In this document: in pieces, positions 22,791-54,454 of the stretch | How the letters are laid out: each line of letters opens with the position of its first letter | Position numbering within the stretch: the stretch's first letter is position 1 | Source: Oscillospiraceae bacterium | GTDB taxonomy: Bacteria > Bacillota > Clostridia > Oscillospirales > CAG-272 | Assembly: GCA_015064285.1 (NCBI GenBank) | Contig: SVSN01000007.1 | Location: 1 to 64,000, forward strand | Direction of reading: 5' to 3' | DNA length: 64,000 nt | Program-made: the position numbers and the translations under genes | Notes under the pieces: generated by a model | Seen by the model: the letters and a program-made list of their open reading frames with translations, nothing else | Databases searched by the model: none | Told to the model about the DNA's origin: nothing

Positions 22791-22862
22791 GGCGCTATAG
22801 CCAAGCGGTAAGGCAGAAGTCTGCAAAACTTTTATTCCCCGGTTCGATTCCGGGTGGCGCCT
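22791..22862 (+). tRNA. tRNA-Cys (GCA), left island junction (attL side)
   Basis: Acceptor GGCGCTA/TGGCGCC, anticodon ctGCAaaa, T-arm CCCCGGTTCGATTCCGGG. Confidence 0.93.
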
Positions 22863-22903
22863 TGGATAACGAAAGACAGTCTCCGATTCGGGGGCTGTTT
22901 TTT
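22795..22903. repeat. Left copy of 109-bp direct repeat (att core: tRNA-Cys from nt 5 + terminator)
   Basis: Matches 54068-54176 with one visible mismatch (ttgGataac/ttgAataac). Confidence 0.9.
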
Positions 22904-23060
22904 TTGTTATTTTTGAGCAAAAAGAAAGCCTGTCCTTTGGGCAGATATGGGTATATTGACGGATGAGGAAATACGTTCGCTGTATCCCGGAATGCTTTTC
23001 GCGTGTAAAACGGAAACGGAATTGGTTTCCAAATTGGTTTCCAAAAAAAGGGGAAATCAT

Positions 23061-23868
23061 ATGGAAAACATTAAGAAAAAGAATGGTGAGGGTTCCATTT
23101 TTCAGGTTTCTGAAAACAAATGGGTGGCAAAAATCAGCCTCGGTACCGGTGCAAACGGAAAACCTGTCATCAAGCAGTTCACCGGTAAGACAGAAGCAAT
23201 TGTGAAAAAGAAGCTGAAAGACTTCCGGAAAAGTGAAGATTTTGCGGAAAGACATATGCCCGCACAGGATACGGTACAGGCATACTTTACCAGATGGTTA
23301 CAGGAATACCAGTATAATAAACTGAAACCCGCCAGTTATGACAGACTGGAAACCACAGTGCGCTGTCATATCCTTCCTGCTGTTGGTGGTACAAAGATGG
23401 ATAAGCTCACCAGAGACGATATACAGGGACTTATCAACAGGATGTTTCCGGCAGGGATTGTCCTATTCTACGGTTAAGAAAGTCTATATGGCTCTGAATG
23501 CCTGTTATAAGCACGCTTTGGCAGATGATACGGTACTGCGAAATCCCTGTCTGGGGATCGTCCTGCCCTCTCAATCAGAACGGACAAAACAGATTGAAGC
23601 TTTTTCAGAAGAAGAAATGGAACGGCTGCAAAGGGAGCTTTTCCAGAAGACGGAATGCGGGGAAAATGTTTATTATTATGCCCCGGCATTTTTGCTGATT
23701 CTGCATACCGGAATGCGGATGGGAGAAGCCTTATCTCTGACATGGGATGATGTGGATTTTGCAAAAAAGACTATCACCATCTGCAAGAACAGCATTCTGG
23801 TGAAGAACCGGAACAGGAAAGGGGAAGCATCCGGCGGATATTCTTTGCAGACACAGAACAGTACCAAT
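23061..23868 (+). pseudogene. Tyrosine-recombinase integrase, frameshifted near 23,440-23,460 and lacking the C-terminal catalytic half
   Basis: Frame 1 MENIKKKNGEGSIFQ...DDIQGLINRM; frame 2 GLSYSTVKKVYMALNACYKHAL...HTGMRMGEALSLTWDDVD then homology stops; no HxxR or Tyr motif follows. Confidence 0.85.
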
Positions 23869-24210
23869 GTGGGTGTATTCATGTTCAATGATTCTTTGGA
23901 TATGGGCATTGGTGCAGACAATACTCTGGTTGATTCTTTCTATCTCTTCGAAGTCGATATTGGGGAACCGCCGGAGATCAGTCAGAAAATTATCTGTATT
24001 TGCTTTTGTTTCCAACACCTTAGCTTTTCTGGAGGTTATGAGCAATACCTTGTACTTTTCGGAGAGCCCCTCATAGTCCACATCGCCATCATGGTACCCC
24101 TCTACGAAAGAGTTCTTACCTGCTCCTACTCCGGCGTAGATAGCAGTTACACCGTGGGATAGCAGGTCTCTTTCTACATCAATTAGGTCAGCAACTCGTT
24201 TCTTTTCCAA
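23865..24210 (-). pseudogene. N-terminal remnant of a P-loop ATPase/helicase-like protein
   Basis: GVTAIYAGVGAGKNSFVEGY (Walker A), YKVLLITSRKAKVLETK; frame runs antisense into the integrase at ~23,865. Confidence 0.65.
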
Positions 24211-35208: not shown

Positions 35209-35542
35209 GGTGTCCTCCCTGACCTTGTGCTCCAATTCCTCGATTCGAGTGTTTGGATCACTTTATCTCTGCAGGAATTTTACCATGGTTTTGTGATTTT
35301 CTTTAGACGTGGATTATTTGGTAGTTACTCATTGAATCATAATTTTCAACCCAGTCCCACACCCAACCACCCTCTCCCATATTTCTTACCGAAACCCTGC
35401 CATTTCAGTTTTAACCACCCCCCATTTCACCAGATTTCCTTTCAAAAATGCGGTTTTGCACCTGTCCATTCTCTGCGGTATACTGAAACCACCACAGGGA
35501 ACGGACAACCTGAACCAAAGCCGGAACGAAAGGAACAACACT

Positions 35543-35818
35543 ATGTCAACAAGCGAACTCATCCGTACCATTGAAGAACTGCAGACTCTGGAACAGCTCA
35601 TCCGGGAAGCAGAAGCCGAAGCGGAATCTCTGAAAGACAGCATCAAGGATGCTATGGTGGAACAGGGCACAGAAGAACTGGAAGTCGGAACCCACATCAT
35701 CCGGTACACCACCGTTCTGACCCAGCGGTTTGACAGTACCTCCTTCAAAAAGAAGTACGAAGAACTCTACCGGGCATTCACCAAGCAGACCACCAGCAAG
35801 CGATTCACCATCAGCTGA
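35543..35818 (+). CDS. Small conserved coiled-coil protein (91 aa), copy 1
   Basis: MSTSELIRTIEELQTLEQLIREAEAEAESLKDSIKDAMVEQG...; paralog at 52914. Confidence 0.8.
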   Translation: MSTSELIRTIEELQTLEQLIREAEAEAESLKDSIKDAMVEQGTEELEVGTHIIRYTTVLTQRFDSTSFKKKYEELYRAFTKQTTSKRFTIS

Positions 35819-35833
35819 GAGGGGGGAACTGCC

Positions 35834-36478
35834 ATGAAAGAGATAAGCAAGTACAGCCGTCTGGCTATGTATCTGGAAAAGCTTTATGACCGCCTGAACG
35901 AAGATTTTTTCTCCGGTGAACTGGAACGGCCTGTCATCACCATCCAGTCTACCGCAAGAGCCTACGGGCACTACACCCTGTACGATGCATGGAGTGTGAA
36001 GGGAGAGGGCTACCGAGAGTTGAATATTGGTGCAGGGACACTGGACAGACCCATCGAAAATGTCCTGGCCACTCTCCTGCATGAAATGTGCCACCAATAT
36101 AACGATGTGGTTCTGAATGTGCAGGACTGTTCCAGAGGAGGGACATACCACAACAAGCTGTTTCAGAAAACGGCAGAAACACACGGTCTGACGGTACGTA
36201 AAACAGAGAAATACGGCTACAGCAGAACAGAACCATCGGATGTACTACTGGAATGGATTTTGAATCATAATATTCAAGAGATTCAGCTGTATCGGAATGA
36301 CCTGCCAATGGTTCCTGTGGTGATACCCGGCGGAGAGACTGCCGGAACAACGGTACACACGGGGAATAAAAACGGTTCCAGACGGTACTGCTGTCCGATG
36401 TGCGGGATGATTGTCCGGGCGACCAGAGTGGTGCATGTAATCTGCGGAGACTGCGGGATGGATCTGGTGGAAGGATGA
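35834..36478 (+). CDS. SprT-like zinc metalloprotease-fold protein, copy 1
   Basis: LLHEMCHQYNDV (HExxH), C-terminal zinc ribbon CCPMCGMIV...CGDCGMDL. Confidence 0.85.
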   Translation: MKEISKYSRLAMYLEKLYDRLNEDFFSGELERPVITIQSTARAYGHYTLYDAWSVKGEGYRELNIGAGTLDRPIENVLATLLHEMCHQYNDVVLNVQDCSRGGTYHNKLFQKTAETHGLTVRKTEKYGYSRTEPSDVLLEWILNHNIQEIQLYRNDLPMVPVVIPGGETAGTTVHTGNKNGSRRYCCPMCGMIVRATRVVHVICGDCGMDLVEG

Positions 36479-36667
36479 TCAGGGGGAATATAACGTGGTG
36501 TGAGGGAGAACAAAAGACACTCCCTCTTATCACATATTATATCATTTTTGTGATTTTGTTTAAGCTGAACAAAAGAACGATTTTTTTTGTTACTTATACA
36601 TCCGTTATAATGACAATATACTTTTAATGGTAAATATGGTATAATGAAGAAAATGAGGTGAATTATT

Positions 36668-39238
36668 ATGGCCTTAAACGATTTTGCATGGGCAAAAAGC
36701 AATCCCAGAAAGTCCCTGTACTGTCACATGTACGAAGCTGCGGTTGCAATCCGTACTCTGCTGACAGACAGCATATACGCACCGGTACTGCGGAATCTTT
36801 CCTTCTGGTTGGGGCTTACTTCCGAAGAAACTATCCGACTGCTTATGTACCTTGCAGCCCTCCATGATATCGGCAAAGCACATCCGCTTTTTCAGAACCA
36901 TAGATCCGTTCCGTTTGCTATACAGTATTTTCAGGATCATCCGGAATACATAGGTAATTATCTCATGCATCCCGATTATCGTCATGAAAAGGGAAGCTGT
37001 ACAGCAGTCTGGCGGATCTGGAAAGACAATGCTGTGTTTGAACCAAAACTCATCAAAGCATTTGCCAATATAATGACACTGCATCATCAAGGGAAAAAAG
37101 GCAATGATTACTGTATTTCCCCAAACCCGGACTGGGATCATCCGGAATGGCAGGGACTGCAGGATGAACTGGAAAGGAAAATACGATTCTGGATAAATCC
37201 ACCGATGGTTACGGGAAAACAGATCCGTCATATGGATGCAGCCTGTACTATGATTACGGCTTTAGTCATTTTTACAGACTGGATTATCTCATCGGAACTT
37301 CTGAGTACGTACGGCGAACCTGCACCGGAAGAACAAATTGAAAACCGGGTGAGAATGTTCCTGAACGCTGCCGGACTGGCGGACTGCAATGGGATTTCTG
37401 AGAAGCACATCTGGGAGATATGGCCTTGGATGAAAGCGGAATCTCTGCGGCCGGTGCAGTCTGTATTGGATACATATCTATCACAAAGAAATGAAATGCC
37501 GACTCTGATGATTCTGGAAGCTCCCATGGGAGAGGGAAAAACCGAAGCCGGTATTTATGCAGCACTGCGGATGGCTGCGTACTGGGAAAAAAGCGGTTTA
37601 TACATTGGTTTGCCGACAGCCGCTACTTCCAATCAGATGCATAGCAGAGTGAATGCACTTCTGGAAACACACAACATTGGATCTGCCAGACTTCTGCACA
37701 GTATGGCTTGGCTGGAAGATTCGGATGATACAATGGTACAGGATGCTGACAATGAGTACAGCGACTGGCTGAAACCTTCCAAAAGATCACTTCTTTCTCC
37801 ATGGGCAGTAGGAACTATCGATCAGGCACTGATGTCTGTATTGCGGGTAAAATACGGTGTTCTGCGTCTGCTGGGGCTGTCCGGAAAAGTTCTTGTACTG
37901 GATGAGATACATGCATATGATGCGTATATGTCTTCCATAATCAAACGGCTTCTGGAATGGTGTAAAGCATTGAAAATTCCGGTTGTAATGCTTTCTGCGA
38001 CACTGCCGGAAGAAAAAAGAGCGGAACTGCTGTCAGTATATACTTCTGATACACCGGCAGCAAAAGGGTATCCGCAGATTTCTGCTGTGTTTGATGATGG
38101 AAAGCTGGAACAGATCGTAGTAGATGGAAGTTATCAAAAGCAGACTGTTTCCATCAATAGGATACCGGTCTCCATGACAGAACCGGCAGAGATTGCCACA
38201 TATTCTGAAAAAAAGATTGTTTCCGGCGGCTGCCTTTGTATCCTTGTCAACACCGTAAAAGCGGCACAGGAGATCTACAGGTATCTGAAAGAAAAGAATC
38301 CGGAATATCCTCTGTTGTTGTTCCATTCCAGATTTACAGCAGCCAGGAAAAAAGAGATTGAAGAAGAATGTATCCGGTTGTTTGGCCCGGATCACAGCAA
38401 TCGTCCGGATAAAGCGATTCTTGTGGCTACGCAGGTGGTGGAGCAGAGCCTCGATCTGGACTTCGATGCAATGATAACAGAAATCGCACCGGTTGACCTG
38501 CTTCTGCAGAGATGCGGCAGACTGCATAGACATAAAGATACCCTGAGACCTGCAGCACTATCTGAACCGGAACTTGGAATTCTTGTCCCCACGGACAGAG
38601 AGTACGGGGCGGCAGAGATGATATATTATCCTCTGCTGCTGGACAGAACAATGGATGTTTTACAGGAGTATCCTTGCATACACATTCCGCAGGACATTCC
38701 GGTTCTTGTGAACAGAGTGTATCAGATGCATACCATGGCACAGGATGAAATGGAAGCATTTTTGAAAATACAATTTCAAGAGGACATTCTGACAGGGCAG
38801 GCCGAAATGGTAGAGCTGGATCCGCCAAATGCCAGAGCATTCCAGTTGAAGAATACATCTGCATTTTTGGAAGACGATGACCAGTCTGTTCAGGCCAAGA
38901 CAAGATTCAGTGAAGAAACTGTCCGGATTGCTATTGTACCGGAACGCCTCTATAAGCAGGTACAGGACAGTACAGGTATATCGGCCGACCTTGCCCGGCG
39001 GGTGATGCTGTACAGTGTGACGGTACGGAAAAAAGTGTTGGATACGTTTCAGATTGCCTGTCCGGATAACAGGAATCCTTTACAGGGGAAGGGAAAACTG
39101 CTCGGAGTATCGCTGTATTGTGCAGCAGAAGAAAGCTGTAAGCCAAACGAAACATGCCGTGTCTGTTTTCAGGAAGGTTGTATACTGGCAGACAAGGAGA
39201 TGGGAATGATTATGAAAAGGAAGGGGGATACAGAATGA
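36668..39238 (+). CDS. cas3: Type I-E CRISPR-associated helicase/nuclease Cas3
   Basis: HD motif LHDIGKAHPLFQNH, Walker A APMGEGKTEA, DEIHAYD, SATLP, VATQVVEQSLDLDFD. Confidence 0.95.
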   Translation: MALNDFAWAKSNPRKSLYCHMYEAAVAIRTLLTDSIYAPVLRNLSFWLGLTSEETIRLLMYLAALHDIGKAHPLFQNHRSVPFAIQYFQDHPEYIGNYLMHPDYRHEKGSCTAVWRIWKDNAVFEPKLIKAFANIMTLHHQGKKGNDYCISPNPDWDHPEWQGLQDELERKIRFWINPPMVTGKQIRHMDAACTMITALVIFTDWIISSELLSTYGEPAPEEQIENRVRMFLNAAGLADCNGISEKHIWEIWPWMKAESLRPVQSVLDTYLSQRNEMPTLMILEAPMGEGKTEAGIYAALRMAAYWEKSGLYIGLPTAATSNQMHSRVNALLETHNIGSARLLHSMAWLEDSDDTMVQDADNEYSDWLKPSKRSLLSPWAVGTIDQALMSVLRVKYGVLRLLGLSGKVLVLDEIHAYDAYMSSIIKRLLEWCKALKIPVVMLSATLPEEKRAELLSVYTSDTPAAKGYPQISAVFDDGKLEQIVVDGSYQKQTVSINRIPVSMTEPAEIATYSEKKIVSGGCLCILVNTVKAAQEIYRYLKEKNPEYPLLLFHSRFTAARKKEIEEECIRLFGPDHSNRPDKAILVATQVVEQSLDLDFDAMITEIAPVDLLLQRCGRLHRHKDTLRPAALSEPELGILVPTDREYGAAEMIYYPLLLDRTMDVLQEYPCIHIPQDIPVLVNRVYQMHTMAQDEMEAFLKIQFQEDILTGQAEMVELDPPNARAFQLKNTSAFLEDDDQSVQAKTRFSEETVRIAIVPERLYKQVQDSTGISADLARRVMLYSVTVRKKVLDTFQIACPDNRNPLQGKGKLLGVSLYCAAEESCKPNETCRVCFQEGCILADKEMGMIMKRKGDTE

Positions 39239-40677
39239 CATTCAATGTACTATCGGAACCATGGATTCCGATAAAAACATCCGATGGAGATGTGAAAGAA
39301 CTGGGAATTCTGGAACTGCTGGAAAAAGCATCGGAACTTCTGGAAATAGCAGATGCTATGCCCCATTACGAATATGGTATATACCGGATGCTGTTTGTAT
39401 TCCTGATGGATGCATACCGACCGGAAACAGATGATGATATTTATTATGATCTGTTAGACGATGGCTCATTTGATATGGAACGTATCAATGAATATGTGGA
39501 AGCCTGTAATGCTGATGGGGAACGGTTCGATCTTCTGGATGAAAAGTATCCGTTTATGCAGTGCGGAAAAGACCAGTGGGCTGCAGATGCAAAAGTGAAA
39601 TCCTCTGCGAACCTTTCGTCTGTGTTTGCGGCAGGTAATAACCATGTGCATTTCGACCACTGCCGGGAAAAGGATCGGAAACTGACCTTTGCAGAAGCAG
39701 CAAAAGCAGTGTGTTCTGTGAATCTGTTCTGTACTTCGGGTGTACAGGGATATCCGTCTACGCCCAGCGGCGCACCACCGATCTACAGTATTATAAAGGG
39801 AAATACTCTGTTTGAAACACTGGTGTATGGGATGGTTGCAGTACACCAGAGCAGGAAGGATGATGTTCCGTTCTGGCGTAGTCAGGAGTATGTGGAACCC
39901 AAAAAACAAGTGGCTAAAATTTCTCTGCTGGAAGGATTGACACTTCCCTGCAGGCGGATCTGTGTACTACAGGAAAATGGAGAGATAGCTTCTGCTTTGT
40001 TCGAACAGGGATTGAATTATGTCAACTACACGGCATGGAATGATCCGTATGTATCCTATTATCAGACAAAAGCCGGGGATCGGGCAAATCTGAAACCGGG
40101 GATTGATAAGGAAACATGGCGGAATTTGGATACACTTCTGAATATTTCCGACACATCGCCGGAGATTGTCAAGCAGTATTTCCGCAATACCAATTGTCAG
40201 ACTGTGCATGTATGTACATATTCGGTTGTTACCAATCAGGCTTCATATCTGGATATGCAGAAGGGTGAATACACGATTCCTGCAGATATTGTCCGGACAC
40301 CACAGCGGTTTGAAGTTCTGCAGGAGGCACTAGCCGCAACGGAACTTACCGGCAGAATACTGCGGAATGCAGTAACAACACTGGCAAAAGAACTTGGATC
40401 AGACGGAAAAACAGGGGCAGCGGTATCGGAATGTGAAAGAACACTCCAACGGTATTATGCTTCTGTGAAAACGGAATTTTTCAGCTGGCTCTGTCCTGTG
40501 CTGCAGGAGGTTCCCGGAGATGAGCTGAATATGTGCAGACAGGAGTGGAATATAAAAATCCGGCGAATCTGCTGGGACACATATGATTCTTTTGCAGAGC
40601 GGCTGGGAGCAGATATCCATGTACTGATGAAAGCGCAGGAAGTAAAAAAAGATATTTTGCAGAAGGAGGGTCACTGA
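39235..40677 (+). CDS. casA: Type I-E Cascade large subunit Cse1/Cas8e
   Basis: MTFNVLSEPWIPIKTSDGDVKELGILELL; position in cas operon. Confidence 0.93.
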   Translation: MTFNVLSEPWIPIKTSDGDVKELGILELLEKASELLEIADAMPHYEYGIYRMLFVFLMDAYRPETDDDIYYDLLDDGSFDMERINEYVEACNADGERFDLLDEKYPFMQCGKDQWAADAKVKSSANLSSVFAAGNNHVHFDHCREKDRKLTFAEAAKAVCSVNLFCTSGVQGYPSTPSGAPPIYSIIKGNTLFETLVYGMVAVHQSRKDDVPFWRSQEYVEPKKQVAKISLLEGLTLPCRRICVLQENGEIASALFEQGLNYVNYTAWNDPYVSYYQTKAGDRANLKPGIDKETWRNLDTLLNISDTSPEIVKQYFRNTNCQTVHVCTYSVVTNQASYLDMQKGEYTIPADIVRTPQRFEVLQEALAATELTGRILRNAVTTLAKELGSDGKTGAAVSECERTLQRYYASVKTEFFSWLCPVLQEVPGDELNMCRQEWNIKIRRICWDTYDSFAERLGADIHVLMKAQEVKKDILQKEGH

Positions 40678-40679
40678 AC

Positions 40680-41183
40680 ATGGAAAATGCACATATACAG
40701 GAATTTTTCCAAAGGCTCGATGCACTGGAACCCAAACACCGGATTCATCTGAAAAGAAGCTGCGGGATGCTTCTGCGGGAAGCGGATGCGGAAACCATGC
40801 AGGTGTTTTTCAGAGTATTGCCGCAGGATGTTCCGGGATGGTTGGAAGACCATTGGTTCACGGCAGCCTGTATCCATTGCCTGTGGAAAGCAGAAGAAGA
40901 GAACAGAAAGCCCATGCAGGAATGTATTGCCGCAGTAAAAGAGCTGGAAGGGACTTCGGAAAGCTTTGAAAAGCGGTTTACCACACTTCTGGAAACACCA
41001 TGGGAAGATGACGGTTTCCTGTGCAGAAAAATGGAACGGATGGCAAAGTACCTGAAGCAGAAAGGATATGCGGTGGACGGGGCACTGCTGCTTCGGGATC
41101 TGCTGTATTGGGATCATGAAGATAAATTTGTCCAGAAGCAGTGGATCAAGACATACTGGCAGATGACACAGAAAGAAAACTGA
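40680..41183 (+). CDS. casB: Type I-E Cascade small subunit Cse2
   Basis: Position between casA and casC; 167 aa helical protein of Cse2 type. Confidence 0.88.
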   Translation: MENAHIQEFFQRLDALEPKHRIHLKRSCGMLLREADAETMQVFFRVLPQDVPGWLEDHWFTAACIHCLWKAEEENRKPMQECIAAVKELEGTSESFEKRFTTLLETPWEDDGFLCRKMERMAKYLKQKGYAVDGALLLRDLLYWDHEDKFVQKQWIKTYWQMTQKEN

Positions 41184-41199
41184 ACGGAGGATATAGAAA

Positions 41200-42324
41200 A
41201 TGCTTATCGAAATTCATATGCTGAAAAACTACCAGCCTACCAATCTGAACCGGGATGATACAGGCGCGCCGAAGACCTGTATGTTTGGCGGCGTACAGAG
41301 AGGGAGAATCTCCAGCCAGTGCCTGAAACACAGCTGGCGTACTTCCGGTTTGCTGAGTGATGCGATCGGGAGCAAGCAGATTGGTGTCAGAACCAGAAAA
41401 TTGCCGGATCTTGTGGGGGAAGCACTGGCGGCAAAAGGGGTAAAAGAAGAATATATCACAGCCCTGCAGAAAAACCTGACCGGGATCGGCACAAAAGATG
41501 GAAAGGAAAACAAGGACGGAAAGACAGCGCAGGTAATTGCCTACAGTCCGGAAGATATTCAGGCGATTACAGATCTGATTCTGGAAAAACTGGAGAACTG
41601 CAAGACAGTCAAAGATGCAGAAAAGATCAAAGCAAAGGATTTGCAGGATATTCTGGGTAAGAACACCAAGCGCAGCGTTACACTGGATATGGCACTGTTC
41701 GGACGCATGGTAACTTCGGATGCCTTTGCGGATGTGGAAGCTGCCATGCAGGTAGCCCATGCGATCAGTACCAATCGCGTATATATGGAATCGGACTATT
41801 TCACTGCAGTGGATGATCTGATTGACGGAAGCGAAACGGAAACCGGCAGCGCTATGATAGGGGACATTGACTATAATTCTTCCTGTTATTATATGTATGC
41901 CTCTCTGGATACGGACAAACTGCGGGAAAACCTGCAGTATAACGATGACGCAGAAGAGATCATGAAAAAGATCGTTCCCGTGCTTGTGGAAACCATGGCA
42001 ATGACCAACCCTTCCGGAAAACAGAATTCCTTTGCCGGACATTCCCTGCCTTCTGCTGTATTGGTGGAATGTAAAGAAAAGCATATCCCTGTCAGCTATG
42101 CCAATGCCTTTGAAGAACCTGTGAAACCGGAAAAGGGCCACGGACTGGTATACGGCAGTATCTGTGCTCTGAAACAGGAATGTGAAAGCATAGCAGCGGA
42201 TTTTGGACTGGCTGTGGAAAAGCGGCTCTGGTTCTCCCGGGATGCTTCTGTCTCCTTTGGGGAAGATATAGCTGTAAACTGCCGGAACTTCCGGGAACTG
42301 CTGGATCAGATTCCGCAGGTATAA
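41200..42324 (+). CDS. casC: Cas7e (Cse4/CasC) backbone subunit
   Basis: MLIEIHMLKNYQPTNLNRDDTGAPKTCMFGGVQRGRISSQCLKHSWR. Confidence 0.96.
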   Translation: MLIEIHMLKNYQPTNLNRDDTGAPKTCMFGGVQRGRISSQCLKHSWRTSGLLSDAIGSKQIGVRTRKLPDLVGEALAAKGVKEEYITALQKNLTGIGTKDGKENKDGKTAQVIAYSPEDIQAITDLILEKLENCKTVKDAEKIKAKDLQDILGKNTKRSVTLDMALFGRMVTSDAFADVEAAMQVAHAISTNRVYMESDYFTAVDDLIDGSETETGSAMIGDIDYNSSCYYMYASLDTDKLRENLQYNDDAEEIMKKIVPVLVETMAMTNPSGKQNSFAGHSLPSAVLVECKEKHIPVSYANAFEEPVKPEKGHGLVYGSICALKQECESIAADFGLAVEKRLWFSRDASVSFGEDIAVNCRNFRELLDQIPQV

Positions 42325-42336
42325 TGGGAGGCGCAT

Positions 42337-43029
42337 ATGGGAATTCCCATTTTACTGTTTCGACTGGAAGGGGTTCTGCAGAGCTGGGGAGAACATTCCA
42401 AATGGGACTACCGGGACAGTGCGGACTTTCCTTCCAAATCCGGGGTTGTCGGTCTGATTGGATGTGCGCTCGGGCTGGAACGGAATGATACCCGTCTGGG
42501 GGAGATCAGCCGGAAGCTGCATATGATTGTCCGTGCAGACAAGCCCGGTGAACTGATTTCCGATTTTCATACGGTATCGGCTGAAGTGCTGTACAATGCC
42601 GAAGGAAAACCGCGTGGCGGCGGCAGTACCGTTATCACACACCGCAGTTATCTGCAGGATGCCAGTTTTCTTGTGGGGCTGACCGGGGATGTGACACTGC
42701 TGGAAGAGATTGAAGCAGCGCTTCAGAATCCCAGATGGACACCATATCTTGGACGGAAAAGCTGTGTACCGACTGTACCGATCATCGGAACTGTGACAAC
42801 AGAATATGATTCACTTCTGCAGGCAATGGAAAAATATCCAGTACGGAAGTGCCGCCGGAACGGGAAAGTACTGCAGGAAACCCCTCTGTTGGTGGAGATG
42901 GAGAGTGAAGGAATGGAAGGCAGACAGCGGCCGGATGAGCGGTCTTGTGAACCGGGACTGCATTATCAGAACAGAAGAGTGGTGGTACGCAGGATTGTGA
43001 AGCAGGAGGAAAACGATGTATCTGAGTAA
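42337..43029 (+). CDS. casD: Cas5e (CasD)
   Basis: LLFRLEGVLQSWGEHSKWDYRDSADFPSKSGVVGLIGCALG. Confidence 0.96.
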   Translation: MGIPILLFRLEGVLQSWGEHSKWDYRDSADFPSKSGVVGLIGCALGLERNDTRLGEISRKLHMIVRADKPGELISDFHTVSAEVLYNAEGKPRGGGSTVITHRSYLQDASFLVGLTGDVTLLEEIEAALQNPRWTPYLGRKSCVPTVPIIGTVTTEYDSLLQAMEKYPVRKCRRNGKVLQETPLLVEMESEGMEGRQRPDERSCEPGLHYQNRRVVVRRIVKQEENDVSE

Positions 43030-43624
43030 AATCGGTCTGGATATACGCGCGGCTTCTGTGCGTCAATCCATGCGGGACTGCGGCGATATGCACCGGAATG
43101 TACAGAAATTGTTCTCCGCCCCCAGAGCAGAAGAGAGTGTTCTGTATCGGGTATATCAGAATGAAACAGGCTGTTTTCTCTACACCATGTCAGAAAATAT
43201 GCCCCGGGAAACGCAGGATACCCTTCACAACGGAATGCATATTCTTGGATGCAAAGACGTTTCAGCTATGGAAGTGGCGTTTATACCCGGAAGACAGCTG
43301 CGATTCAATCTTCTGACAATGCCGTTTAAGAAGGTCTATGATGGGGTCAGCAAAAACAGCCGCAGGAAATTTTTGCAGTCTCCGGAAGAGAGGGCGGCAT
43401 GGCTTCAGCGAAAAGGAGAACAAAACGGTTTTCAGATTCTCAGCATGGAGGAACTGCAGGGGAACATACTGACAAGCCGCCAAAAGGGAGAAACGATGTA
43501 TATTCCGACTGTCCGGTATACAGGGGTTCTGTGTGTACAGGACAGGGATGCGTTTATTCACGGATGGAAATATGGTATTGGTGCTGAGAAAGCATATGGT
43601 TTGGGAATGCTGTTGATCCAGTGA
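43016..43624 (+). CDS. casE: Cas6e (CasE) crRNA endoribonuclease
   Basis: MYLSKIGLDIR...DMHRNVQKLFS; C-terminal GIGAEKAYGLGMLLI. Confidence 0.95.
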   Translation: MYLSKIGLDIRAASVRQSMRDCGDMHRNVQKLFSAPRAEESVLYRVYQNETGCFLYTMSENMPRETQDTLHNGMHILGCKDVSAMEVAFIPGRQLRFNLLTMPFKKVYDGVSKNSRRKFLQSPEERAAWLQRKGEQNGFQILSMEELQGNILTSRQKGETMYIPTVRYTGVLCVQDRDAFIHGWKYGIGAEKAYGLGMLLIQ

Positions 43625-43651
43625 TAGAAATGAATTTTTTGTGAACGAAGT

Positions 43652-44171
43652 GTATACCCCACGTGTGTGGGGATGAACCGCGGTACAGAGTATCCGGACA
43701 GCAAACGCAACGGTATACCCCACGTGTGTGGGGATGAACCGCAGATTGACGAATTTGAGAAGTGCCACACGCTGTATACCCCACGTGTGTGGGGATGAAC
43801 CGCGATGCACACCGATAAAGATCTGGCCTGGCTCCGTATACCCCACGTGTGTGGGGATGAACCGAATTTTGAGACGGCCCACAAGACCGCAACCCTGTAT
43901 ACCCCATGTGTGTGGGGATGAACCGTACCGCTGTATGAGACGGGCGGCAGAACTATTGTATACCCCACGTGTGTGGGGATGAACCGTAGTTGTTGCTGAT
44001 CTCCACACCATTCATATGGTATACCCCACGTGTGTGGGGATGAACCGCATACGACGAAACCACGGCCTACGGCGACAACCCGTATACCCCACGTGTGTGG
44101 GGATGAACCGAAGCTCTATACCATACCGGAGGACAACGAGCAGTATACCCCACGTGTGTGGGGATGAACTA
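43652..44171. CRISPR. Type I-E CRISPR array: 9 repeats of 29 bp, 8 spacers of 32-34 bp
   Basis: GTATACCCCACGTGTGTGGGGATGAACCG at 43652, 43713, 43774, 43836, 43897, 43958, 44019, 44082, 44143. Repeat 5 has one substitution; the terminal repeat is degenerate (...AACTA). Confidence 0.98.
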
Positions 44172-44247
44172 CATTGATGGGGTATAACATATGCCAAAAG
44201 ATTTCCATAAACCGTGGTAAATCGGACAGTACCGGTACTTCATTCCG

Positions 44248-45333
44248 TCACCGCGTATAGATCCTGCATAATGTTCCCAACGGATGCCATACATTATAGT
44301 CCAGATTTGTCTGTACTCCGAACAATACATCTTTTCCCGCTCCATTCCGGTTCTTGACAATCTTGAATGCGGCAACATTGGTGTCTTTGGGAATAGAGAT
44401 GCGTTTTTCAGCACCGGATGGTTCCTGTATTTTTACGCAGAATTCCTGCGGATTGATCATTTTGAACATCAGCATATTGTCTGTGACATGCATGATGTGT
44501 TTGGCATTTGCAATGTTATTGGAGTTCAAATCCTCCGGATTCTTGTAAACAGTATCATCGGTCAGCTGGAATGTGGCAAGCCCTGTGATACTATCCGGAT
44601 CACTTTTTATAACTTCGGATAACTCAGTTGCGGTCTGCTGCAGTTCACCCCACTCGGCACTTCCGCAGCTTTTCAGGGTATCATATGCCACAACTCTGCA
44701 CCCTTTCTTCTTTGCGGTTCGGATTTCCATACGGATGCGTTCGATACTGTAGTCGTCACTTATATTCTTAAAATGAAACATATTCCGGTAATTGGTTTGC
44801 AGCCAATCCAGTATGTTCAGATAGGCCTTAAATGTGCTGCTTTCCGCTTCCAGACGTTTCATATAGTCTTCCGTTGTCTCATGTAGCTGTTTCTCTATCG
44901 GCTGTCCATCCGTTGTGCGGAACTGCGGCTGAGTAATATCTGATTGGGTCATGTGCAGTGTCTGACCATGCAGTGCACAAAGCTGCGGCATATTGACGAT
45001 GGTACATAACAGGATTTTTTCAAACTGTTCCTGTGTCATTTCATTTATACGTTCCGGCTTCTTAAACAGTTTCCTGTACACTTCGTTATTGGCAATCCAC
45101 TTTATATGCAGCAAAGCCATTTTCTCCGGGGTTAAATCTGCACTGTAAGTTTTATAATAGTCTTGTAGAAAACTGTAAGAGATTCTTCCACCGTCATCAT
45201 GAAAGTCATCTGCATGGAGGCTGTAGTTATACTGTTCCAGTAATGATATGTTATTGGATATGTGGCCAAGCAGAACAAGTTCGGCGGATGTAGTAATTGT
45301 GGTTTGGGATAGGTTTTCTTCCTCATGAGTCAT
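44248..45333 (-). CDS. DnaB-like replicative helicase-related protein (divergent)
   Basis: RIRMEIRTAKKKGCRVVAYDTLKSCGSAEWGELQQTATELSEVIKSDPDSITGLATFQLTDDT resembles DnaB-type C-terminal sequence. Confidence 0.5.
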   Translation of the reverse strand: MTHEEENLSQTTITTSAELVLLGHISNNISLLEQYNYSLHADDFHDDGGRISYSFLQDYYKTYSADLTPEKMALLHIKWIANNEVYRKLFKKPERINEMTQEQFEKILLCTIVNMPQLCALHGQTLHMTQSDITQPQFRTTDGQPIEKQLHETTEDYMKRLEAESSTFKAYLNILDWLQTNYRNMFHFKNISDDYSIERIRMEIRTAKKKGCRVVAYDTLKSCGSAEWGELQQTATELSEVIKSDPDSITGLATFQLTDDTVYKNPEDLNSNNIANAKHIMHVTDNMLMFKMINPQEFCVKIQEPSGAEKRISIPKDTNVAAFKIVKNRNGAGKDVLFGVQTNLDYNVWHPLGTLCRIYTR

Positions 45334-45348
45334 AAAATCACACTCCTC

Positions 45349-45858
45349 TTAAAACTGAATAAAATAGGTATTGACAGTATTCTCGTAGGCCGAACGCTCC
45401 TCAAGAGCGGGCGGTTCAACTATGTTTTCTATGTTTTCTGTATTGTTTTTGGATACACCATCCTGCTTTTTTCGTGGTGTGTTTTTGGGTACACCTGTTT
45501 TGGTTTTTCGCGACCGATTCTGTTCCTTGTCGGCATGGGGGGCACCGCCTTCATAAAAGGTGAAGTGGCTTTTCCAGTTTTCATCCGGAACAAGATATCC
45601 TTTTTCGAGAAGTTCCGCAAAGGCTTTTCTGTAGGTACTCTCTGTACAACTGGTTTTCTGCAGCAGAATGGCAGGTGAAAACCAATCTTCGTAATTGTTG
45701 GCATTCAACGCCATGTAGCTGTACAGCATGTAGGCACTGTAACTCAGGTTTTTCATTGCATCCTGAGCCGCTTGGATATTGATTTTTGTGTAACCTGCTG
45801 TTCCTTCGATTTTGTGATACGTAATTCTGCGTTGATTTTGGTTGCTTGAAAAAATCAT
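45349..45858 (-). CDS. Winged-helix replication-initiator-like protein
   Basis: NLSYSAYMLYSYMALNANNYEDWFSPAILLQKTSCTESTYRKAFAELLEKGYLV; strong RBS. Confidence 0.6.
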   Translation of the reverse strand: MIFSSNQNQRRITYHKIEGTAGYTKINIQAAQDAMKNLSYSAYMLYSYMALNANNYEDWFSPAILLQKTSCTESTYRKAFAELLEKGYLVPDENWKSHFTFYEGGAPHADKEQNRSRKTKTGVPKNTPRKKQDGVSKNNTENIENIVEPPALEERSAYENTVNTYFIQF

Positions 45859-52636: not shown

Positions 52637-52913
52637 CATCACAAACCGCATCGATACGACAAAGCGAAAGGACAGGTCTATTCGGCCTGTTCTTTTTTCG
52701 CTGAATCATAATTTTCAACCCAGTCCCACACCCAATCACCCTCTCCTATATTTCATACCGTAACCCCGCCATTTCAGTTTTTAACCACCCCCCATTTCAC
52801 CAGATTTCCTTTCAAAAATGCGGTTTTGCACCTGTCCATCTTCTGCGGTATACTGAAACCACCACAGGGAACGGACAACCTGCACCAAAGCCGGGAACGA
52901 AAGGACAGACATC

Positions 52914-53189
52914 ATGTCAACAAGCGAACTCATCCGCACCATTGAAGAATTGCAGACTCTGGAACAGCTGATCCGGGAAGCAGAAGCCGAAGCGGAATCT
53001 CTGAAAGACAGCATCAAAGCCGTCATGGTGGAAAAAGGTATGGAAGAAATGGAGGCCGGAACGCACATCATCCGGTATACCACCGTTCTGACCCAGCGGT
53101 TCGACAGCACCTCTTTCAAGAAAAAGTACGAAGAACTCTACCGGGCATTCACCAAGCAGACCACCAGCAAGCGATTCACCATCAGTTGA
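52914..53189 (+). CDS. Small conserved coiled-coil protein (91 aa), copy 2
   Basis: Paralog of 35543-35818. Confidence 0.8.
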   Translation: MSTSELIRTIEELQTLEQLIREAEAEAESLKDSIKAVMVEKGMEEMEAGTHIIRYTTVLTQRFDSTSFKKKYEELYRAFTKQTTSKRFTIS

Positions 53190-53202
53190 GAGAGGGGCTG
53201 CT

Positions 53203-53847
53203 ATGAAAGAAATCAGCAAGTACAGCCGTCTGGCTATGTATCTGGAAAAGCTCTATGACCGACTGAACGAAGACTTTTTCTCCGGGGAGCTGGAACGGCC
53301 TGTCATCACCATCCAGTCTACCGCAAGAGCCTACGGGCACTACACCCTGGACGATGCATGGAGTGTGAAGGGAGAGGACTACCGAGAACTGAACATCGGC
53401 GCCGGTACACTGGACAGACCCATCGAAAACGTCCTTGCCACCCTGCTGCATGAGATGTGCCACCAATACAACGATGTGGTACTGAATGTACAGGATTGTT
53501 CCAGAGGGGGGACATACCACAACAAGCTGTTCCAGAAGACTGCGGAAGAACACGGCCTGACGGTGCGGAAAACAGAGAAGTACGGCTACAGCAGAACAGA
53601 ACCATCGGATGTACTGCTGGAATGGATTTTGAATCATAATATTCAAGAGATTCAGCTGTATCGGAATGACCTGCCAATGGTTCCTGTGGTGATACCCGGC
53701 GGAGAGACTTCCGGAACAACGGTACACACAGGAAACAAAAACGGTTCCAGACGGTACTGCTGTCCATCGTGCGGGATGATTGTCCGGGCGACCAGAGTGG
53801 TGCATGTGATCTGCGGGGACTGCGGGATGGATCTGGTGGAAAGGTAA
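53203..53847 (+). CDS. SprT-like zinc metalloprotease-fold protein, copy 2
   Basis: LLHEMCHQYNDV; zinc ribbon CCPSCGMIV...CGDCGMDL. Confidence 0.85.
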   Translation: MKEISKYSRLAMYLEKLYDRLNEDFFSGELERPVITIQSTARAYGHYTLDDAWSVKGEDYRELNIGAGTLDRPIENVLATLLHEMCHQYNDVVLNVQDCSRGGTYHNKLFQKTAEEHGLTVRKTEKYGYSRTEPSDVLLEWILNHNIQEIQLYRNDLPMVPVVIPGGETSGTTVHTGNKNGSRRYCCPSCGMIVRATRVVHVICGDCGMDLVER

Positions 53848-54067
53848 TTGGGGGAAAGATTTAGACTATATAAGGGGGAGCAAAAAAGTCCCCCCTTTTT
53901 AGTCAGAATGATATACCACAGTTCGGATAATTTGACACAGTCCATCTTCTGTGCTATACTTTCTTACGAAAAAATACAAACCACATTTGGTTTCCAATTT
54001 GGTTTCCAACACATTTTCGGGAGACTGCATACACCTGAAATAACAAGGTATTTCCTTGCGATTTCGC

Positions 54068-54176
54068 CTATAGCCAAGCGGTAAGGCAGAAGTCTGCAAA
54101 ACTTTTATTCCCCGGTTCGATTCCGGGTGGCGCCTTGAATAACGAAAGACAGTCTCCGATTCGGGGGCTGTTTTTT
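54068..54176. repeat. Right copy of 109-bp direct repeat (attR): tRNA-Cys lacking its first 4 nt, plus terminator
   Basis: Identical to 22795-22903 except one base; upstream TCGC cannot pair with the acceptor 3' strand. Confidence 0.9.
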
Positions 54177-54454
54177 GTTGCTTGTGGGCAAAAAGGAGAC
54201 CCGGTTTTTTGTACAGAATGCCTGTGGGAAGCGGACGAGCGTTTCCGAATGGTTATGGCTTGCGGAAAGCATATGCCCGTACAGTATTATGGCACGAGAC
54301 AATGTCGAAAACAGACTACCAGAAATCGGTTCATTATTCGCAAGAGTATATGGTATCCCTACAGTACGATGCATATTTATATCACCAGTTTCGCAGGTAT
54401 TTTTGCTTCTGCGAAGAAAAAGGTTTCCGCACGATTGTGTTGAAACCTTCTTGA

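What the first reader, a model, noticed from the sequence alone, without database searches (positions are those of the whole stretch)
36668..44171. Type I-E system reduced to interference only, with the leader nearly gone
cas3-casA-B-C-D-E is complete, but no cas1 or cas2 exists in the window. Only 27 bp separate the cas6e stop from the first repeat, where cas1-cas2 and the leader normally lie. The degenerate repeat is at the distal end, so the leader side is the cas side. A clean deletion of adaptation module plus leader would leave this. The array is probably frozen and co-transcribed with the cas operon.
Basis: partly seen in the sequence, partly recalled or inferred. Interest (0 to 1): 0.7.

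Follow-up and report, generated by a model that had tools for sequence, protein, structure and literature searches.

The report
CRISPR system that lost memory-making genes
This bacterium carries a CRISPR defence (type I-E) whose targeting genes look intact but whose memory-writing genes, which once sat just beyond the array, have been deleted down to a six-codon scrap; this is an ordinary kind of decay, though relatives show a possible sign that the memory-writing enzyme can cut out its own genes.

Summary
In detail: a complete I-E effector operon, a 9-repeat array 27 bp after cas6e, no cas1/cas2 gene, and the degenerate repeat at the far end.

The explanation needs correcting twice. First, cas1-cas2 did not lie between cas6e and the array. 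At least four relatives have cas6e-array-cas1(-cas2), and here the first six codons of cas1 survive just beyond the last repeat (44191-44208). A second decayed copy in the same genome (contig C107) keeps one repeat, the same cas1 start and the cas2 C-terminus. The adaptation genes were lost downstream of the array.

Second, the leader is not nearly gone. Canonical relatives have only about 15-25 bp between cas2 and the array, ending in AGT. The window ends in AGT too, and its 21-nt leader is identical in a relative with only ~40% identical Cas6e.

The locus sits in a ~31 kb tRNA-Cys island with a broken integrase. The array is very probably frozen in cis, but the MAG is only 73% complete.

Most novel lead: in seven decayed loci (C107 included) a deletion joins the array at a repeat edge, six at the 5' edge that Cas1-Cas2 normally attacks. 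This hints at integrase-made self-deletion; the sample is small and was noticed post hoc.

The parts
36668..39238 (+). cas3 (HD nuclease-helicase), 856 aa, full length
   Evidence: Pfam and NCBIfam; conserved positions kept
39154..40677 (+). cse1/cas8e; start codon uncertain, listed ORF overlaps cas3
40680..41183 (+). cse2
41200..42324 (+). cas7e
42337..43029 (+). cas5e
43016..43624 (+). cas6e; His26 invariant among 19 relatives
43631..43651 (+). Short leader TGAATTTTTTGTGAACGAAGT, ending in AGT
   Evidence: Identical in L037; AGT ending in nearly all leader-bearing relatives
43652..44171 (+). CRISPR array, 9 repeats of 29 nt and 8 spacers; last repeat degenerate
44191..44208 (+). 5' stub of cas1, six codons MPKDFH (ORF runs on to a stop at 44220)
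   Evidence: Sequence; same start on C107 followed by the cas2 C-terminus; Cas1e starts of relatives
44248..45333 (-). DnaB-like replicative helicase (partial match to the family), just beyond the cas1 stub
   Evidence: PHROG 19, E 2e-14
45349..45858 (-). Replication initiation protein-like
   Evidence: PHROG 270
22791..22924 (+). tRNA-Cys and left copy of the flanking direct repeat of the island (repeat 22795-22924)
22947..24162 (+). Broken tyrosine integrase in two frames, catalytic domain truncated
   Evidence: Pfam
54068..54195 (+). Right copy of the flanking repeat with part of tRNA-Cys; right end of the island
35333..36488 (+). SprT-like segment upstream of cas3, repeated at 52702-53856 (92%); its first 97 bp flank the remnant on C107

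Best explanation
A type I-E CRISPR-Cas locus on a decayed tRNA-Cys island, of the layout cas3-cse1-cse2-cas7-cas5-cas6e-leader-array-cas1-cas2. The effector genes, leader and array are kept. cas1-cas2, which lay downstream of the array, was deleted to within six codons of the cas1 start. Inferred function: the array is read through from the cas operon, Cas6e cuts the transcript into crRNAs, and Cascade-Cas3 destroys DNA matching the eight old spacers; no spacers can be added in cis. Shown: genes, array, leader conservation, cas1 stub, no I-E cas1 found in the assembly. Inferred: expression, interference, and no adaptation in trans.
For: Full-length effector proteins with few, mostly conservative departures from positions invariant in relatives. 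cas6e-array-cas1-cas2 layout intact in L015, L019 and L040; L046 runs into cas1 at its contig end; L074 is a more distant example. cas1 start codons after the last repeat in the window and on C107, where the cas2 C-terminus follows. Only RT-Cas1 (C2) and a Cas2 fragment (C107) elsewhere. Identical 21-nt leader in L037 and the general AGT ending. No terminator- or promoter-like site in 43400-44400.
Against: The assembly is a MAG, 73% complete in 134 contigs, so an I-E cas1-cas2 elsewhere cannot be excluded. No protospacer was found for any of the eight spacers, so past targeting is not shown. The cas1 stub is only 18 nt; its identity rests on position, on C107 and on relatives.
Confidence: 0.85

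Rival explanations
1. One reading: the ancestor was canonical (cas6e-cas1-cas2-leader-array) and one clean deletion removed cas1, cas2 and the leader from between cas6e and the array.
For: Canonical order is the commoner one among relatives, for example L013, L018, L023 and L029; the gap is short.
Against: cas1 start codons lie after the array in the window and on C107; several relatives have the array before cas1; the leader is present.
Confidence: 0.06
2. The array is still growing because an I-E cas1-cas2 acts in trans from an unassembled part of the genome or another replicon; the intact leader is kept for that reason.
For: Leader identical to that of L037; the MAG is 73% complete; trans use of adaptation machinery is proposed for mobile-element systems (PMC9071438).
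Against: No I-E cas1 in the assembly. The only Cas1 found is an RT-Cas1 with its own arrays and an unrelated repeat. L037, which shares the leader, also has a broken cas1.
Confidence: 0.12
3. The whole locus is dead: effector genes are unexpressed relics of an immobile island and merely have not decayed yet.
For: The island's integrase is broken, a sister copy on C107 has decayed almost completely, and no spacer target was found.
Against: Six open frames of normal length with conserved positions largely kept, beside a cas1-cas2 that has gone entirely.
Confidence: 0.2
4. Assembly artefact: the loss of cas1-cas2 is a misjoin in a metagenome assembly.
For: The source is a fragmented MAG.
Against: The locus lies well inside a 64-kb stretch; C107 shows an independent decayed cas1-cas2; isolate genomes L014 and L016 show the same layout with cas1 stubs.
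Confidence: 0.03

Closest known systems
Canonical type I-E CRISPR-Cas (cas3-cse1-cse2-cas7-cas5-cas6e-cas1-cas2-leader-array)
   Same: All six effector genes in the same order; 29-nt palindromic repeat; spacers of about 32 nt
   Different: Array directly after cas6e; cas1-cas2 lay downstream of the array and is deleted
CRISPR-Cas loci on plasmids and other mobile elements without adaptation modules (36% of plasmid loci have one against 88% of chromosomal loci, PMC9071438)
   Same: Effector plus array without cas1-cas2, on an island derived from a mobile element
   Different: The loss is visibly secondary: a cas1 stub remains, and the island itself is immobile
Type I-E loci of Butyricicoccus pullicaecorum DSM 23266 (L014) and Pseudoflavonifractor capillosus An827 (L016)
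   Same: cas6e-array-cas1 stub (about 53 and 10 codons), no cas2
   Different: Different deletion endpoints and array lengths (about 4 and 26 repeats)

Membership tests
Type I-E CRISPR-Cas | Cse1/Cas8e and Cse2 with Cas7e, Cas5e and Cas6e | tested here: met
   All above NCBIfam cut-offs
Type I-E CRISPR-Cas | Cas3 with HD and helicase domains | tested here: met
Type I-E CRISPR-Cas | Array of 28-29-nt palindromic repeats with spacers of about 32 nt | tested here: met
Type I-E CRISPR-Cas | I-E Cas1-Cas2 adaptation module (usual, not required for the subtype) | tested here: not met
   Absent from the window; no I-E cas1 and only a cas2 fragment in the assembly
Interference-only CRISPR-Cas | No adaptation genes for this array anywhere in the genome | tested here: inconclusive
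   None of I-E type found, but the MAG is 73% complete
Interference-only CRISPR-Cas | Effector destroys matching DNA | not testable with these tools
   Needs an assay
Integrated tRNA island | tRNA gene at one end, flanking direct repeat, integrase | tested here: met
   tRNA-Cys, 128-130-bp repeat at 94.6%, integrase present but broken
CRISPR-associated transposon | Tn7-like tns genes and tniQ with Cas3 absent | tested here: not met
   Cas3 present; the neighbouring ORFs scanned gave no tns or tniQ match

The most novel reading that the evidence does not exclude
Cas1-Cas2 may delete its own genes. In five relatives a truncated cas1 runs straight into the 5' edge of a CRISPR repeat with the leader gone (L021, L022, L024, L036, L060), and C107 in the window's own genome joins an upstream flank to the exact first base of a repeat. 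In L051 the cas1 stub joins at about the 3' edge of a lost repeat. These edges are where Cas1-Cas2 makes its two strand transfers, so a broken chromosome end used as a prespacer could be joined to the array, deleting what lies between.
Probability: 0.25. Interest if true: 0.8.

Novelty: new member of a known kind. Interest (0 to 1): 0.42.

Why it matters
The locus shows the adaptation half of a CRISPR system lost while effector genes and leader are kept. The comparison shows repeated cas1 loss among related loci, whereas nearly all of about 30 other Bacillota I-E loci sampled keep cas1. If the repeat-edge junctions hold up in a larger sample, they would suggest one reason why so many CRISPR systems lack adaptation genes: the integrase may remove itself. 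That is directly testable by breakpoint surveys and in vitro.

Tried and rejected
Spacer targets: no match in 50,697 phage records, no exact match of a 22-23-nt core of each of the 8 spacers in IMG/VR, and no convincing self-match (best 85% over 27 nt). RT-Cas1 on C2 as supplier of adaptation: different repeat and own arrays, judged unlikely. Hairpin slippage as the cause of repeat-edge junctions: the palindrome starts about 5 nt inside the repeat, whereas the junctions lie at the repeat edge. The shared distal spacer of L019, L021 and L046 as a self-targeting element: its degenerate pattern occurs only in the arrays of those genomes. The class-level search was run with too strict an E-value and added little. 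Family searches around G187 and G363 gave no new independent fusion; L095 has the same sequence as L021. Literature searches found no report of cas1 stubs fused to repeats, but the library is partial.

Full report
Observation. The window holds a complete type I-E effector operon at 36668-43624: cas3, cse1, cse2, cas7, cas5, cas6e. All match Pfam models, and all pass NCBIfam cut-offs (for Cas3, the core helicase and HD models). A 9-repeat array follows at 43652-44171 with 8 spacers. The gap from cas6e to the first repeat is 27 bp, and the last repeat is degenerate at its 3' end, so the leader side is the cas side. No cas1 or cas2 gene is in the window. In the assembly (73% complete, 134 contigs) the Cas1 family matches only an RT-Cas1 on contig C2, which has its own arrays with an unrelated repeat, and the I-E Cas2 family matches only a C-terminal fragment on contig C107.

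Where the adaptation genes were. Shortly after the last repeat the window reads GTATAACATATGCCAAAAGATTTCCATAAACCGTGGTAA: an ATG and six codons (MPKDFH) that match the start of Cas1e in relatives (MPKDLHELPK in L021, MKKDFHELPK in L013), then a stop. Contig C107 carries a repeat, a homologous junction with the same ATGCCAAAAGA start, and then roughly the last 35-44 residues of Cas2. Relatives show the ancestral layout: L015, L019 and L040 have cas6e-array-cas1-cas2 intact, L046 has cas6e-array-cas1 up to a contig end, and L074 is a more distant example. Butyricicoccus pullicaecorum (L014) and Pseudoflavonifractor capillosus (L016) have the same layout with cas1 cut to about 53 and 10 codons. 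So cas1-cas2 lay downstream of the array and was lost there, not between cas6e and the array.

The leader. Relatives with the canonical order cas6e-cas1-cas2-array mostly have only about 15-25 bp between cas2 and the first repeat, so 27 bp is not unusual. Of 25 leader-bearing arrays, 23 end in AGT directly before the first repeat in the scripted count. L014 was off by one coordinate in that script and also ends in AGT, making 24; only L034 (AGC) differs. Only 4 of 428 internal spacers end in AGT. The window ends in AGT, and its 21-nt leader TGAATTTTTTGTGAACGAAGT is identical to that of L037, although their Cas6e proteins are only about 40% identical. The leader is therefore present.

Context. 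The locus sits in an island of about 31 kb. tRNA-Cys at 22791-22862 and a 128-130-bp direct repeat (22795-22924 and 54068-54195, 94.6%) mark its ends; the integrase is broken into two frames with a truncated catalytic domain. An IS66 transposase, a GH127 gene, a duplicated SprT-like segment (35333-36488 and 52702-53856, 92%), a replication initiator, a DnaB-like gene and an LRR-dockerin gene share it. The DnaB-like gene ends 27 bp beyond the cas1-stub ORF. C107 is a decayed second copy: its flank equals window 35332-35428 at 96% and then jumps to the repeat.

Function. The effector proteins depart from positions invariant in relatives about as often as other members do, mostly conservatively, and Cas6e His26 is kept. 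With no terminator- or promoter-like site found around the cas6e-array junction, read-through is the simplest expression model. No spacer target was found in phage records or IMG/VR, and there was no convincing match elsewhere in the genome. I infer working interference with a frozen set of eight spacers; this is not shown.

How common is it? Among the relatives brought in by Cas7e or Cas6e, broken or truncated cas1 occurs in L014, L016, L021, L022, L024, L036, L037, L051, L059 and L060. In a phylum-wide sample of about 30 Bacillota I-E loci, nearly all keep cas1 near cas6e; the exceptions are L078, L089 and L090. Loss of adaptation on mobile elements is already documented: 36% of plasmid loci have an adaptation module against 88% of chromosomal loci (PMC9071438).

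A lead from the relatives. In L021, L022, L024, L036 and L060 a truncated cas1 runs straight into a CRISPR repeat, with the AGT leader gone. Reading the sequences against intact Cas1, the residual between the last cas1-like base and the repeat is 0-2 nt in L022, L036 and L060, one repeat base is missing in L024, and up to about 4-7 nt is uncertain in L021. The automatic alignment ran some codons into the repeat for L021, L024 and L060, so those three values rest on reading by eye. C107 joins the upstream flank to the exact first base of the repeat. In L051 the stub is followed by one spacer length (34 nt) before the repeat, which places that junction at about the 3' edge of a lost repeat. If breakpoints were uniform over the 61-bp period, five or more of seven within 2 nt of the 5' edge would have a probability of about 7e-5. 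The pattern was noticed first and tested afterwards, the sample is small, most are MAGs and the loci are related, so this number is only indicative. That Cas1-Cas2 joins prespacer ends at these two repeat edges is established knowledge; joining of a broken chromosome end there is my inference. The window's own cas1 deletion is not of this type, since its far end is not a repeat.

Verdict. An ordinary kind of decay, correctly spotted, with its geometry and leader misread. The repeat-edge junctions are the part worth following.

Noticed in passing
L021:4818, L022:12527, L024:5016, L036:12724, L060:2378, L051:2253; L002:6436 (C107, minus strand): Truncated cas1 (on C107 an upstream flank) joined directly to a CRISPR repeat edge with the leader gone; six at the 5' edge, L051 at about the 3' edge of a lost repeat.
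   Followed up: partly
L019:13594, L021:4970, L046 (G398:C87:313-344): The distal-most spacer is shared by three species with mostly synonymous-like differences (reads QLMAGGGVALI or near). Its degenerate pattern occurs only in the arrays of those genomes.
   Followed up: partly
L003 (own genome, around C2:8558-9394): RT-Cas1 fusion plus Cas2 between two arrays with repeat GTATCAATCTCTAATATAGGTATGGAAAG.
   Followed up: no
window 22791-54195: tRNA-Cys island of about 31 kb with broken integrase, GH127, AraC-type regulator, IS66 transposase and LRR-dockerin protein.
   Followed up: partly
window 35333-36488 and 52702-53856: A 1.16-kb direct repeat (92%) with a SprT-like gene on both sides of the cas operon and LRR gene.
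   Followed up: partly
L024:4397-5285: Selenomonas locus with array, cas1 stub, second array, then cas3.
   Followed up: no
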